Part shown: piece after piece, positions 20,145-63,176 of the stretch
Position numbering within the stretch: position 1 is the first letter of the stretch
How the letters are laid out: each line of letters starts with the position of its first letter
Assembly (NCBI RefSeq): GCF_039645975.1
Contig: NZ_CP147918.1
Location: 1,798,001 to 1,862,000, forward strand
Direction of reading: 5' to 3'
Origin: Sulfurimonas sp. HSL-1716
GTDB lineage: Bacteria > Campylobacterota > Campylobacteria > Campylobacterales > Sulfurimonadaceae
DNA length: 64,000 bases
Notes under the pieces: generated by a model
Database searches by the model: none
Told to the model about the DNA's origin: nothing
The model's input: the letters and a program-made list of their open reading frames with translations, nothing else
Translations under genes and position numbers: made by a program

Positions 20145-20170
20145 GATCACTGAAAACTAAGCAAGCAGAC
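20145..20170 (-). repeat. 3' arm of 16S precursor processing stem
   Basis: Complementary to 21919-21944 over 26 nt with two mismatches that can be G-U pairs. The arms lie about 80 nt past the 16S 3' end and 150 nt before its 5' end, as expected for the RNase III stem enclosing 16S. Confidence 0.82.
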
Positions 20171-21768: not shown

Positions 21769-22136
21769 GAATTATTTGAACCAAAGCCCAAGATAAAAAT
21801 CATTGGCTTTATTTTTTAAAAAGTATCCATTTAATAAATAGTATTAAATAGACGGTTATGTTATAGTTATCTTTAAGTAAACTTCCGACAACCCTAACTC
21901 TCGTTAGCCGTCCCCGTCGTCTACTTGCTTAGTTTTCAATGATCTCAAACGTGAAATTCTTATCTCTCTTTAAATCCCTAAACTTTAGGTCTCTTCGTTT
22001 GTGGACGGGAATTATAGGGAAAAATCTATCCATTGTCAAGAGGTTTTTTACCGAATTTTTAAAATTTTCGTCTTTTTGTTGATTTACGTAATTCTTTTGC
22101 ACTTTTATCAGTGATATTTATGAAAAAATATTATTT
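21769..22136 (-). other. rRNA leader and promoter region
   Basis: 368 nt without a protein gene. It contains the consensus promoter at 22011-22039, a CCTAAA-G-TTTAGG inverted repeat at 21977-21989, the 5' arm of the 16S processing stem at 21919-21944, and a CTAAC-GAGA-GTTAG hairpin with a GNRA-type loop at 21893-21906. No boxA-like antitermination signal was recognised with confidence. Confidence 0.7.
22011..22039 (-). promoter_or_regulatory. rRNA operon promoter (consensus sigma-70)
   Basis: Minus strand: -35 TTGACA at 22034-22039, 17-nt spacer, -10 TATAAT at 22011-22016. Both hexamers are perfect. It is followed by TCCCGTCCACAAAC, nearly the same as downstream of the tRNA-Lys/Glu promoter at 61201. 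Confidence 0.92.
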
Positions 22137-47500: not shown

Positions 47501-48175
47501 ATGCGTATTCTGATTATAGAAGATGAAGTTACTCTAAACAAAATGCTGGCAGAGGGGCTAAAAGAGTTTGGCTACCAAAGTGACGTTGTAGAAACCTTAA
47601 AAGATGGCGAATACTATCTTGATATCCGTAACTACGATTTAGTATTGATGGACTGGATGTTACCGGACGGCGATAGCGTCGATATCATCCCTAACATAAA
47701 AACAAATACACCAAAAACCGTTGTAGTCGTACTTTCTGCCCGAGATGACGATGAAAGCGAGATCGAAGCACTGCGTGCGGGTGCCGATGATTATATCCGC
47801 AAACCGTTTAACTTCGACGTTCTCATAGCCCGTTTAGAAGCTCGTCTTCGTTTTGGCGGAAGCTCTATTATCGAGATCGAAGATCTTACGATCAATCCCG
47901 AAGAGGAAAAGATCATCTATAAAGAGCAGGAGATCGAGCTCAAGGGCAAACCATTCGAAGTTCTTACACACCTTGCACGCCACCGCGACCAGATCGTCTC
48001 AAAAGAGCAGCTGCTTGATGCTATCTGGGAAGAACCTGAACTTGTAACTCCAAACGTTATCGAGGTCGCGATCAATCAAATTCGTCAAAAAATGGACAAA
48101 CCGTTAGGAATTACCACTATCGAAACGGTCCGCCGCCGCGGTTACAGATTTTGTTTTCCAAAAGAAGTAAACTAA
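47501..48175 (+). CDS. hsrA: OmpR-family response regulator, HsrA/CosR orthologue
   Basis: 224 residues. Canonical receiver: acid pair Glu7/Asp8, phospho-acceptor Asp51 (LVLMDWMLPDG), Ser79, Lys101 (YIRKPF). Winged-helix C-terminal domain with LKGKPFEVLTHLARHRDQIV and VTPNVIEVAINQIRQKMDKP, which closely match the DNA-binding domains of H. pylori HsrA (HP1043) and C. jejuni CosR as I remember them. The single Cys218 (GYRFCFP) corresponds to the redox-active Cys218 described for CosR. HsrA/CosR are known as essential atypical regulators lacking a usual phosphorylation site; this one keeps it and is followed by a kinase gene. Confidence 0.88.
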   Translation: MRILIIEDEVTLNKMLAEGLKEFGYQSDVVETLKDGEYYLDIRNYDLVLMDWMLPDGDSVDIIPNIKTNTPKTVVVVLSARDDDESEIEALRAGADDYIRKPFNFDVLIARLEARLRFGGSSIIEIEDLTINPEEEKIIYKEQEIELKGKPFEVLTHLARHRDQIVSKEQLLDAIWEEPELVTPNVIEVAINQIRQKMDKPLGITTIETVRRRGYRFCFPKEVN

Positions 48176-48317: not shown

Positions 48318-49616
48318 ATGTTAATGCAAAGAAGTATACGCAAGCGCTTTTTCATTCAACTTATTTTTGCTTCTGCATCCTTGATACTGATATTTACCTC
48401 TTTTGCTTATTTGTACATTGAAAAATCGATCTATGACGAAAAAAGAGACGAACTGATAAAGTTTGCTCAAAATATCGCTTCTTATAAATCCCTTTATGAC
48501 GCAACCGTAACAAACCCCGATACCTTTTTGGGACTCTCCGTTGAACTTGTGAACCTGAAACAGCAGCTGGATTATGTACATATGTATGAAAAGACAACAA
48601 AAAACAGGACATATCTTACCATCATCTATCCCTTTAAGATCCATGATCTTAGCTATCTGAAGATCACCAGAGACATCACTCCCACAAAACAGCTTTTAAA
48701 CAACATCTTAAACTCTATATTTATCATAAACACCGTCGGTTTCATTCTCATAATTTTGTATGCTATCGCTCTGTCTAAGATGCTGATCGCTCCGGTCACA
48801 ACACTCTCAAACAGACTCTCGAACATGAACGAACACTTGATGCAGACCATCAAAATAGAAGAGCTGCCAAAAGAGTTTGAACCTCTTGGCAATACCCTGA
48901 ATCATCTTATCAACAGACTTCAAAATTTTGTAAAATATCAAAAAGAGCTCTTTATCGGTACTGCACACGAACTAAAGACTCCTCTTGCAGTCATAAAATT
49001 GAAAAATCAGGTCACTCTTCTTAAAAAACGCACACCCGAAGAGTACGTAGAGGCTCTAAAAACTACCAACAAAGCCGTGGACGACATGAACCACATAGTT
49101 TCAAACATACTCAATATCGGACGTCAGGAGGGAGCACAGCTTGAAAAACCGACAGAAGTCGATATCATAGCCGTTTTGCGGGAAAAAGCCAACGACTTCA
49201 AACTGCTTGCGGAAAATGAAGGTAAACAGCTCATCATGAGCTTTAAACCCGACTTGTTTATGGCAACGCTTCAGGTCAGTCTTTTAAACCAGATAGTCCA
49301 AAACTTTTTGCAAAACGCCCTGAAGTTCACTCCAAAAGACAAAAGAGTTTATATAAGCAGTTATTTAAACGATGAAGGGCTTGTTATAGAAGTACTCGAT
49401 GAAGGCTGCGGTATCGATGACAGCGTCGATCTGTTCGCTCCTTTTAAACGCCAGGGAAATAAAAGCGGGGTCGGACTGGGCCTCTTTTTGGCAAAAAGCG
49501 CCGCTGATGCCATAGGCGGTAAAATAGAGCTGAAAAATAGAGGGGATGGGGTATCCGGAACAAAAGCGTCACTCACGATTATCTCCAAGCTCTGCTGTCC
49601 TTTGCATTTCAAATAA
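48318..49616 (+). CDS. Membrane sensor histidine kinase
   Basis: 432 residues. Membrane segments at 11-33 and 133-154 bound a periplasmic sensor of about 100 residues. A HAMP linker follows, then HisKA with His217 (GTAHELKTPLAV) and a HATPase domain (NFLQNALKFTP, DEGCGI, GVGLGLFLAKSAADAIGG). A standard class I kinase. It lies 142 nt downstream of the HsrA-like regulator on the same strand and is its likely partner, though a terminator and a separate promoter lie between them. Confidence 0.92.
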   Translation: MLMQRSIRKRFFIQLIFASASLILIFTSFAYLYIEKSIYDEKRDELIKFAQNIASYKSLYDATVTNPDTFLGLSVELVNLKQQLDYVHMYEKTTKNRTYLTIIYPFKIHDLSYLKITRDITPTKQLLNNILNSIFIINTVGFILIILYAIALSKMLIAPVTTLSNRLSNMNEHLMQTIKIEELPKEFEPLGNTLNHLINRLQNFVKYQKELFIGTAHELKTPLAVIKLKNQVTLLKKRTPEEYVEALKTTNKAVDDMNHIVSNILNIGRQEGAQLEKPTEVDIIAVLREKANDFKLLAENEGKQLIMSFKPDLFMATLQVSLLNQIVQNFLQNALKFTPKDKRVYISSYLNDEGLVIEVLDEGCGIDDSVDLFAPFKRQGNKSGVGLGLFLAKSAADAIGGKIELKNRGDGVSGTKASLTIISKLCCPLHFK

Positions 49617-61200: not shown

Positions 61201-61229
61201 TTGACATTAAAAAATAGTTTTACTATAAT
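61201..61229 (+). promoter_or_regulatory. Promoter of tRNA-Lys/tRNA-Glu operon (consensus)
   Basis: -35 TTGACA at 61201-61206, 17-nt spacer, -10 TATAAT at 61224-61229. Followed by TCCCCTCCACAAAC, almost the same as downstream of the rRNA promoter. A 7-bp inverted repeat ACAAACA/TGTTTGT lies at 61238-61255. Confidence 0.93.
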
Positions 61230-61294
61230 TCCCCTCCACAAACACAGGTGTTTGTTTTAGGAAACATCGCAAAGCGGGCGTTTCTTTATATTTT

Positions 61295-61370
61295 GTCTCG
61301 TTAGCTCAGTTGGTAGAGCACGTCACTTTTAATGATGTGGCCGATGGTTCGAGTCCATCACGGGACACCA
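61295..61370 (+). tRNA. tRNA-Lys (TTT anticodon)
   Basis: 76 nt: acceptor GTCTCGT pairs with ACGGGAC, CCA encoded. D-loop AGCTCAGTTGGTAGAGC, anticodon TTT in the loop CTTTTAA, T-loop GGTTCGAGTCC. A substrate of MnmA. First of two tRNAs in a short operon. Confidence 0.96.
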
Positions 61371-61380
61371 CTTTATAACT

Positions 61381-61455
61381 GGCTCCATCATCTAATGGTT
61401 AGGATTCAAGGTTTTCATCCTTGCCATAGGGGTTCGAATCCCCTTGGAGTCACCA
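61381..61455 (+). tRNA. tRNA-Glu (TTC anticodon)
   Basis: 75 nt: acceptor GGCTCCA pairs with TGGAGTC, CCA encoded; anticodon TTC in the loop TTTTCAT; T-loop GGTTCGAATCC. Ten nt after tRNA-Lys. An integrase gene begins 100 nt downstream, so its 3' half is the likely attachment site of an integrated element. Confidence 0.96.
61420..61455 (+). other. Candidate attachment site (attL) in tRNA-Glu 3' end
   Basis: Inferred: tyrosine recombinases of islands usually recombine in the 3' half of a tRNA gene. No second copy of the tRNA-Glu 3' end is in this window, so the other boundary must lie beyond 64000 if the element is intact. Confidence 0.4.
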
Positions 61456-61554: not shown

Positions 61555-63176
61555 ATGAGTAACTTTTTTCTACAACGCAATAAAACTTTCTATTTTCGCA
61601 GAAGAATCCCCAAAGAATGTTTAAAATACTTCAAAAATCGTGAAGAAATCCGAATCAAAGTGTCGCAAAGCAGCCATTTCCAGGTTACACTGTCGATAAA
61701 GGTACTAAATTCAATCTATGAGGAGCTTCTCACTATGCTAGTTTTATATGGCGGAAACAATAAAGATGCACTTGTTATGCAGTACATGACACGGATGAAA
61801 GAGTTTGCAGAACTCAATACTCCAACTCTTCCAATCATCACCTACTCAACAGAGCAGTTCTACCATGAACAAAACGAAGAAATCAACGATCAGATATTAA
61901 ACAAGATAGGAAACTATACTCTCCAAGAAAAAAAGAAACTCCTCAAGAACCTCGATGCATTAGAGACATTCACGCAGATCATTGATGTGCGTTCAGACTT
62001 TGCACCTCAAATAAAGAGGAACCAAAAGAAGTAAAAAGAACGACCATCACCTTTAAGGAACTCTATGAGCTTTTCATAAAAGAGAAAAAGCTCACAGCTC
62101 CAAATACTACTCAAAGTACATGGAGAGATTATGAAGCTGCATATCAAGACTTTATCTATGTCATTGAAAATGCAGAGGCTAGAGACATTACCTCCTTTAC
62201 AAAAGAAGACCTAAGAACCTTTGCAGATGCACTGCATAACCACCTTCCCTCTAGCAGAACTAAAAAACCACAGTTTAAACACCTTACCTACTCTGAGCTT
62301 AAAACCATAGAGTTAAAAGAGAATGAAAAAACAGCATTCGCTACAAAGCAAAAGAAGATGCTCTCAATAAAACAGATATTCGATATTGCAAGCGATGCGA
62401 GATACAGCTATATAACAGAAAACATAGTCGAACCATTCTTGATGAAAAAACCAAAAAACAGCAAGAAGATTCAAAAAGAGAGAAAACCACTAAGCGAAGA
62501 GAATCTTAAAAAGCTTTTCACTTCTAAACTCTATACGGACAAGCTGAAGCATACCCTCACATTTGCACCTGAGAAATACTGGATTCCTATAATTGCTGGT
62601 TATTCTGGTATGCGACAAAACGAGATATGCCAGCTCTATGTAGAAGACCTTAAAAGTATTACAACAGACATGGGTGAGATTATATGGTACTTTGACCTCA
62701 ATGAAGAGAAAGACAAACATCTTAAAAATGAGAATGCCTTCCGTCTAGTGCCACTTCATCCTAAGCTTATTGAGCTTGGATTTATTGAATACTACAATTC
62801 CATAAAAAATAAACAGCCAAGACTATGGAAAAACCTGAGGCTCCACCCGAAAGAGGAAAGGTACAACACGGACTATGGCAAGAATTTTATGAAGTATTTC
62901 AGGAAGCATGTAACTGAAGAAGAAGATCAGGTATTTCATAGTCTTAGACATAATGTTGGAGACCAGCTTATGAAAAATGCTGTTCACTATAAGCTGCCAA
63001 AAGACCTTATGAATCGCATTATGGGTCACGAACCTGACAAAGATATGACCTCTGTTGTTTATTCGCAAGGGTATGGAGTTGAAGAGCTTTATGAGGGGAT
63101 TAAGACACTTGACTTCAAAGATCTTATTCACTTGAAATTAAATTCAACCTGCGCTATGCTTCCTTTTCAGAATTAA
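61555..63176 (+). pseudogene. Tyrosine recombinase (island integrase), frameshifted
   Basis: Two frames together read as one integrase. 61555-62034 encodes the N-terminal domain (FLQRNKTFYFRRRIPKECLK, DUF6538-like). The rest is in the -1 frame, open from 61986, and contains a SAM-like core-binding domain (ITFKELYELFIKEKKLTAPN; STWRDYEAAYQDF), then the catalytic domain: GMRQNEICQLY (Arg), HSLRH (HxxR), MGHEP (His) and SVVYSQGY (Tyr). The shift falls between 61986 and 62034 around a CAAATAAAGAGGAACCAAAA stretch. A -1 slippery heptamer is not evident, so this is probably a mutation or sequencing error. About 540 residues if restored. It directly follows tRNA-Glu. Confidence 0.85.

What the first reader, a model, noticed from the sequence alone, without database searches (positions are those of the whole stretch)
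61201..61255. rRNA and tRNA-Lys/Glu promoters share a near-identical block past the -10
Both promoters are perfect TTGACA-17-TATAAT, and the 20 nt from the -10 onward match at all but one position (TATAATTCCC, then C or G, then TCCACAAAC). The match runs through the discriminator and the first transcribed bases, further than core promoter constraint explains. The other TATAAT promoters here (ndk, kinase, lpxC) lack it. Each leader then has a short inverted repeat. It may be a stable-RNA signature for stringent or initiating-NTP control.
Basis: seen in the sequence. Interest (0 to 1): 0.6.

Follow-up and report, generated by a model that had tools for sequence, protein, structure and literature searches.

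The report
Shared start block of ribosomal-RNA promoters
The genes for ribosomal RNA and one lysine/glutamate tRNA pair in this Sulfurimonas-type bacterium and its relatives start with the same 20-letter block, which combines a known kind of growth-rate switch with the first strand of a fold at the front of the RNA.

Summary
TATAATTCCC[G/C]TCCACAAAC follows a perfect TTGACA-17 at the window's rRNA operon and at tRNA-Lys-Glu. It is exact at 3 of 4 own rRNA operons plus tRNA-Lys-Glu; the fourth rRNA copy differs by one base. All 86 readable rRNA promoters sampled in the family carry it (+1 A or G, -4 free). Shuffled sequence gives none.

The block is two overlapping modules. TCCC[N]TCC is an 8-nt C-rich discriminator, start expected nine bases past the -10, as at E. 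coli rrn P1. Graded versions precede most other tRNA genes and the S10, EF-Tu and S15 genes; the genome encodes one RelA/SpoT-type and two DksA-family proteins. This favours the stringent/initiating-NTP reading, untested. ACAAAC looks conserved because CAAAC forms a 5'-terminal RNA stem with GTTTG: a hairpin in tRNA-Lys leaders, and in rRNA leaders a closing stem beside the RNase III processing stem. Support: covariation and excess 5' pairing, in related sequences.

Unexpected: 46 of 86 rRNA promoters use TTGACA-17; the other 40 have TTAAN8TAAG instead, the published HP1043/HsrA site. An HsrA homologue lies in this window.

New variant of a known kind.

The parts
61201..61229 (+). tRNA-Lys-Glu core promoter, TTGACA-17-TATAAT
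   Evidence: 0 mismatches
61230..61237 (+). 8-nt C-rich discriminator TCCCCTCC
   Evidence: sequence; same length and start position as E. coli rrnB P1 (PMC7822876); rrnB P1 letters from own knowledge
61238..61255 (+). inferred +1 A (61238) and 5'-terminal hairpin ACAAACA-CAGG-TGTTTGT
   Evidence: minimum-energy and centroid structure, leader z = -3.15; the same hairpin in most relatives' Lys leaders
61295..61455 (+). tRNA-Lys(TTT) and tRNA-Glu(TTC)
   Evidence: ARAGORN and Rfam
22011..22039 (-). rRNA core promoter, TTGACA-17-TATAAT
   Evidence: 0 mismatches
22003..22010 (-). 8-nt discriminator TCCCGTCC; inferred +1 A at 22002
   Evidence: sequence; identical in the other three own rRNA operons
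21996..22001 (-). 5' strand of the leader-closing stem, CAAACG (+2 to +7)
   Evidence: paired with CGTTTG in minimum-energy and centroid fold
21946..21951 (-). 3' strand of the leader-closing stem, CGTTTG
   Evidence: GTTTG (GTTTTG in own operon 4) at this place in the family leaders that could be read
21924..21944 (-). 5' strand of the pre-16S processing stem (GATCATTGAAAACTAAGCAAG), one base after the leader stem
   Evidence: complementary to 20145-20165; cofold
20145..20165 (-). 3' strand of the pre-16S processing stem, in the 16S-tRNA-Ile spacer
47501..48175 (+). HsrA/HP1043/CosR homologue, candidate activator of the second class of rRNA promoters (own 4th rRNA operon, outside the window)
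   Evidence: phmmer E 4.6e-107 to 8uvx, 8.3e-88 to 2hqr; PF00072 and PF00486

Best explanation
The block is the common initiation module of rRNA and tRNA-Lys-Glu transcription in this family, made of two overlapping parts. (1) TCCC[N]TCC is an 8-nt C-rich discriminator that places the start A nine bases after the -10 box. By analogy with E. coli rrn P1 it makes a short-lived open complex whose output follows initiating ATP and is cut by ppGpp/DksA (inferred). (2) The first transcribed bases, ACAAAC, form a 5'-terminal RNA stem with a downstream GTTTG. In tRNA-Lys this is a small hairpin ahead of the mature tRNA. In pre-rRNA it closes the 5' leader next to the 16S processing stem. The pairing is shown as sequence complementarity with covariation. 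Its role is inferred: it hides the 5' end from 5'-dependent RNases and/or orders leader folding.
For: Block at 86/86 readable rRNA promoters of the family (2 more were truncated) and at Lys-Glu leaders of many relatives. Position -4 is free (G 47, A 31, C 8) while its neighbours are fixed, which argues against recent copying between loci. Own fourth rRNA operon has CAAAAC paired with GTTTTG, a matched insertion. In other families ACAAAC pairs with GTTTGT (f4) and TCAAAC with GTTTGA (f5). At the next pair (+7) in f1, partner C occurs only with G and partner T only with A; permutation p = 0.0012. Predicted pairing of the first 8 nt: 33 rRNA leaders 0.575 vs 0.389 in shuffles, p 2e-5; 28 tRNA leaders 0.46 vs 0.24, p 1.5e-8. 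Window leaders z = -3.15 and -2.03. GTTTG lies outside the processing stem. Discriminator geometry as at rrnB P1 (PMC7822876). One RSH and two DksA-family proteins, one with a DxxDxA motif.
Against: Start sites are inferred, not mapped. Sequences are related, so the p-values are too small. Several tRNA leaders (Asn-Phe, Thr-Tyr, Ala, one Met) show no 5' hairpin, and f8 rRNA leaders show none. The rRNA stem is only 5-8 bp and shows no excess with 40-nt leaders, as expected from a partner at +50 or later. One Lys leader keeps ACAAAC without a hairpin partner (L103). ppGpp/DksA contact residues of RNA polymerase were not checked.
Confidence: 0.6

Rival explanations
1. The whole block, ACAAAC included, is DNA/polymerase signal: discriminator plus initially transcribed sequence tuned for start selection, escape and NTP sensing; the complementarity to GTTTG is secondary.
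For: The block is nearly invariant over a whole family; L103 keeps ACAAAC at tRNA-Lys without the hairpin; the initial sequence is also fixed within other families (f7 AATTTGA).
Against: Matched changes on both strands (own rrn4, f4, f5, +7 pair), and several families have a predicted 5' stem made of different letters.
Confidence: 0.22
2. The tRNA-Lys promoter was copied from an rRNA promoter by duplication or gene conversion, and the match is recent descent without function.
For: Match at 19 of 20 bases, and CTCTTGACA shared upstream.
Against: The spacer and the leader beyond the block differ, position -4 differs between the two loci of the own genome, and many relatives' Lys operons carry only the graded discriminator.
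Confidence: 0.08
3. The block is a binding site for a dedicated DNA-binding regulator of stable RNA genes lying over the start.
For: Long contiguous conservation past the core promoter.
Against: No dyad or repeat within TCCC[N]TCCACAAAC, graded divergence at other tRNA promoters, and the known stable-RNA regulator of the phylum, HP1043, binds upstream of the -10 (PMC5253667).
Confidence: 0.05

Closest known systems
E. coli rrn P1 (rrnB P1) promoters, G+C-rich discriminator under ppGpp/DksA and initiating-NTP control
   Same: 8-nt discriminator rich in C/G, start nine bases after the -10 (PMC7822876), start with A; found at rRNA and tRNA genes
   Different: TCCC[N]TCC instead of GCGCC[N]CC (E. 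coli letters from own knowledge); fixed ACAAAC that pairs downstream; UP element and Fis sites not examined; 40 of 86 family copies lack a -35 box
HP1043/HsrA-bound promoters of Helicobacter pylori (PMC5253667, PMC8345958)
   Same: TTTAAG-N5-TTTAAG just upstream of the -10 with no -35 box; bound in vivo at 16S rRNA and tRNA promoters; homologue encoded in the window
   Different: The window's two promoters use TTGACA instead; only own rRNA operon 4 and 40 of 86 family rRNA promoters (that operon included) have the HsrA-type layout
5'-terminal stem-loops that protect transcripts (E. coli ompA type, own knowledge; a stem-loop in a H. pylori 5' UTR influences expression, PMC4843948)
   Same: base-paired 5' end of the primary transcript
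   Different: here on precursors of rRNA and tRNA, with the first strand embedded in the promoter block

Membership tests
ppGpp/DksA-sensitive stable-RNA promoter (rrn P1 type) | G/C-rich discriminator of about 8 nt with the start nine bases after the -10 | tested here: inconclusive
   discriminator met; the start site itself is inferred, not mapped
ppGpp/DksA-sensitive stable-RNA promoter (rrn P1 type) | ppGpp synthetase and DksA encoded in the genome | tested here: met
   PF04607 1 hit, PF01258 2 hits; DxxDxA in one DksA-family protein
ppGpp/DksA-sensitive stable-RNA promoter (rrn P1 type) | transcription inhibited by ppGpp/DksA and dependent on initiating NTP | not testable with these tools
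   needs in vitro transcription or a starvation experiment
HsrA/HP1043-type promoter | TTTAAG-N5-TTTAAG replacing the -35 box | tested here: not met
   the window's two promoters have TTGACA-17; met at own rRNA operon 4 and at 40/86 family rRNA promoters
HsrA/HP1043-type promoter | HsrA homologue present | tested here: met
   window 47501-48175(+), E 8.3e-88 to 2hqr
5'-terminal stem on a transcript | first transcribed bases paired, with compensatory change | tested here: met
   start sites inferred, sequences related, some leaders without it
5'-terminal stem on a transcript | stem protects the RNA or is needed for maturation | not testable with these tools
   needs mutants or probing

The most novel reading that the evidence does not exclude
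In Campylobacterota the initially transcribed sequence of rRNA and tRNA operons is under joint selection as promoter DNA and as the first strand of a 5'-terminal RNA stem. It sits below two exchangeable upstream modules (sigma -35 box or HsrA site), so that operons with the same output module answer to different inputs within one genome.
Probability: 0.4. Interest if true: 0.6.

Novelty: new variant of a known kind. Interest (0 to 1): 0.45.

Why it matters
I found no analysis of rRNA promoters of Sulfurimonas-type Campylobacterota in the papers I could search; in Campylobacter jejuni most promoters lack a clear -35 box (PMC3656092). The block gives an exact, testable map: which bases should set the ppGpp/ATP response, which should act through RNA folding, and which rRNA operons within one genome should need HsrA. 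The split of one rRNA module between a sigma-type and an HsrA-type upstream half could help explain why HsrA/CosR is essential.

Tried and rejected
Rejected: chance (0 in shuffles); the full block as a mark of all stable RNAs (most tRNA promoters have only the graded discriminator); GTTTG as part of the RNase III stem (the cofold leaves it out); f7 rRNA leaders pairing with a far downstream segment (weak; a local hairpin fits better). Led nowhere: 40-nt folding of rRNA leaders showed no excess pairing because the partner mostly lies further on; an HsrA-site scan of the window shows no enrichment (14 hits against 15.6 by chance), so only the fixed position at rRNA promoters counts; literature searches found no description of the block or of a 5' stem in this phylum. 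A first response-regulator candidate was not HsrA. A first regular expression missed or under-counted the HsrA-type layout and was corrected.

Full report
What was checked. The window is bases 1798001-1862000 of a 2.26 Mb single-contig genome whose block is shared mainly with records titled Sulfurimonas and relatives. TTGACA-17-TATAAT without mismatch occurs twice in the window, at 61201-61229(+) and 22011-22039(-). The block TATAATTCCC[CG]TCCACAAAC occurs at the same two places and nowhere else in the window with up to three mismatches; none is expected by chance. The first precedes tRNA-Lys(TTT)-Glu(TTC), the second 16S-tRNA-Ile-23S-5S.

Whole genome. Exact copies are at three rRNA operons and Lys-Glu; the fourth rRNA operon has ACAAAA in place of ACAAAC. 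Upstream regions of the tRNA operons show a graded version: after TATAAT comes roughly T[TC]C[GC][GC]Y[TC]C in Pro, Met-Gln, Glu, Gly, Lys-Asp-Val and others, mostly followed by A. A looser pattern, TATAATTYCNNYYC, has 14 hits against 2 for the reversed control. Eight are rRNA or tRNA genes; others precede genes that read as ribosomal protein S10, EF-Tu and S15, a DEAD-box helicase and a transporter-like protein, and one has no clear gene (gene names by reading the translations). So the discriminator belongs to the translation machinery in general; the full block belongs to rRNA and tRNA-Lys-Glu.

Relatives. A scan of genome contigs with the block returned Campylobacterota-type records (plus one titled only 'bacterium'). 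To avoid choosing by the block, 16S 5' ends were located in 100 family genomes and the DNA upstream was read. All 86 readable rRNA promoters have TATAATTCCC[GAC]TCC followed by [AG]CAAAC, or CAAAAC in the own fourth operon; two more were truncated before the promoter. The base at -4 is G 47, A 31, C 8. In other families of the order the discriminator is mostly still C-rich but the first transcribed bases differ: f11 and f4 keep CCACAAAC, f7 has CCAATTTGA, f3 mostly TCACGA, f10 CCTCGTTTGAG.

What the extra six bases do. In most tRNA-Lys leaders of this type ACAAACA is followed closely by TGTTTGT: a hairpin at the very 5' end, then a short stretch and the mature tRNA (window leader z = -3.15). 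In the family's rRNA leaders GTTTG stands immediately before [AC]GATCATTGAAAACT. That downstream element is the 5' strand of the pre-16S processing stem, whose other strand is in the spacer at 20145-20165. GTTTG itself is outside that stem and pairs with +2 to +6. Evidence that the pairing is selected: the own fourth operon has CAAAAC and GTTTTG; f4 has ACAAAC/GTTTGT and f5 TCAAAC/GTTTGA; at +7, partner C is seen only with G and partner T only with A (permutation p 0.0012 on 26 types). The first eight bases are predicted more paired than in dinucleotide shuffles, in 33 rRNA leaders (p 2e-5 at 110 nt) and in 28 tRNA leaders (p 1.5e-8). These p-values overstate the case because the sequences are related. 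Some leaders show no stem (Asn-Phe, Thr-Tyr, Ala, f8 rRNA; one Lys leader, L103, keeps ACAAAC without a partner).

Most likely mechanism. Shown: the sequence pattern, its gene specificity and its complementarity. From established work on E. coli rrn P1 (PMC7822876): a G+C-rich discriminator and a start nine bases after the -10 give an unstable open complex that escapes quickly and is sensitive to initiating ATP and to DksA/ppGpp. The genome has one RelA/SpoT-type protein and two DksA-family proteins, one with DxxDxA. Inferred: the block sets stringent and ATP control, and the transcribed half protects or organises the 5' end of the precursor. H. pylori has an RNase J-based degradosome (PMC7492731, title), which makes 5' protection plausible but does not show it.

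Unexpected upstream split. Of the 86 promoters, 46 have TTGACN with a spacer of exactly 17, and the other 40 have TTAAN8TAAG exactly 11 bases before TATAAT, with no overlap and no remainder. The latter fits the published HP1043/HsrA site: two TTTAAG hexamers 5 bp apart, just upstream of the -10, no -35 box, with in vivo peaks at 16S rRNA and tRNA promoters of H. pylori (PMC5253667) and activation shown in vitro at one promoter (PMC8345958). Own rRNA operon 4 is of this class; own operons 1-3 and Lys-Glu are TTGACA. The HsrA homologue is in this window at 47501-48175(+). That this protein acts on operon 4 is a prediction.

Verdict. The discriminator half is a known kind. The fixed transcribed half as the first strand of a 5' stem, and the exchange of two upstream halves over one fixed block, I did not find described. 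New variant of a known kind; interest 0.45.

Noticed in passing
G000:C1:760529 (L164, own rRNA operon 4) and 40 of 86 family rRNA promoters: rRNA operons of one genome split between TTGACA-17 and an HsrA-type TTAAN8TAAG-11 upstream half over the same downstream block.
   Followed up: partly
47501-48175(+): HsrA/HP1043/CosR homologue, followed at 48318 by a histidine-kinase-like ORF on the same strand, although HP1043 is described as an orphan regulator.
   Followed up: partly
61555-63176(+): A tyrosine-recombinase gene just downstream of tRNA-Glu that appears split into ORFs 61555-62034 and 62358-63176 (PF00589 in the second); it looks like a decayed integrase of an element inserted at the tRNA.
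   Followed up: partly
L404, L406, L413 (own genome): Genes that read as S10, EF-Tu and S15 have the same kind of C-rich discriminator as the tRNA genes, which hints at a growth-rate regulon.
   Followed up: no
L408 (G000:C1:553885-553898, minus strand): The nearest relative of the block outside stable RNA genes, TATAATTCCGTTCCGCAAAA, precedes a DEAD-box helicase gene with a leader of about 80 nt.
   Followed up: no
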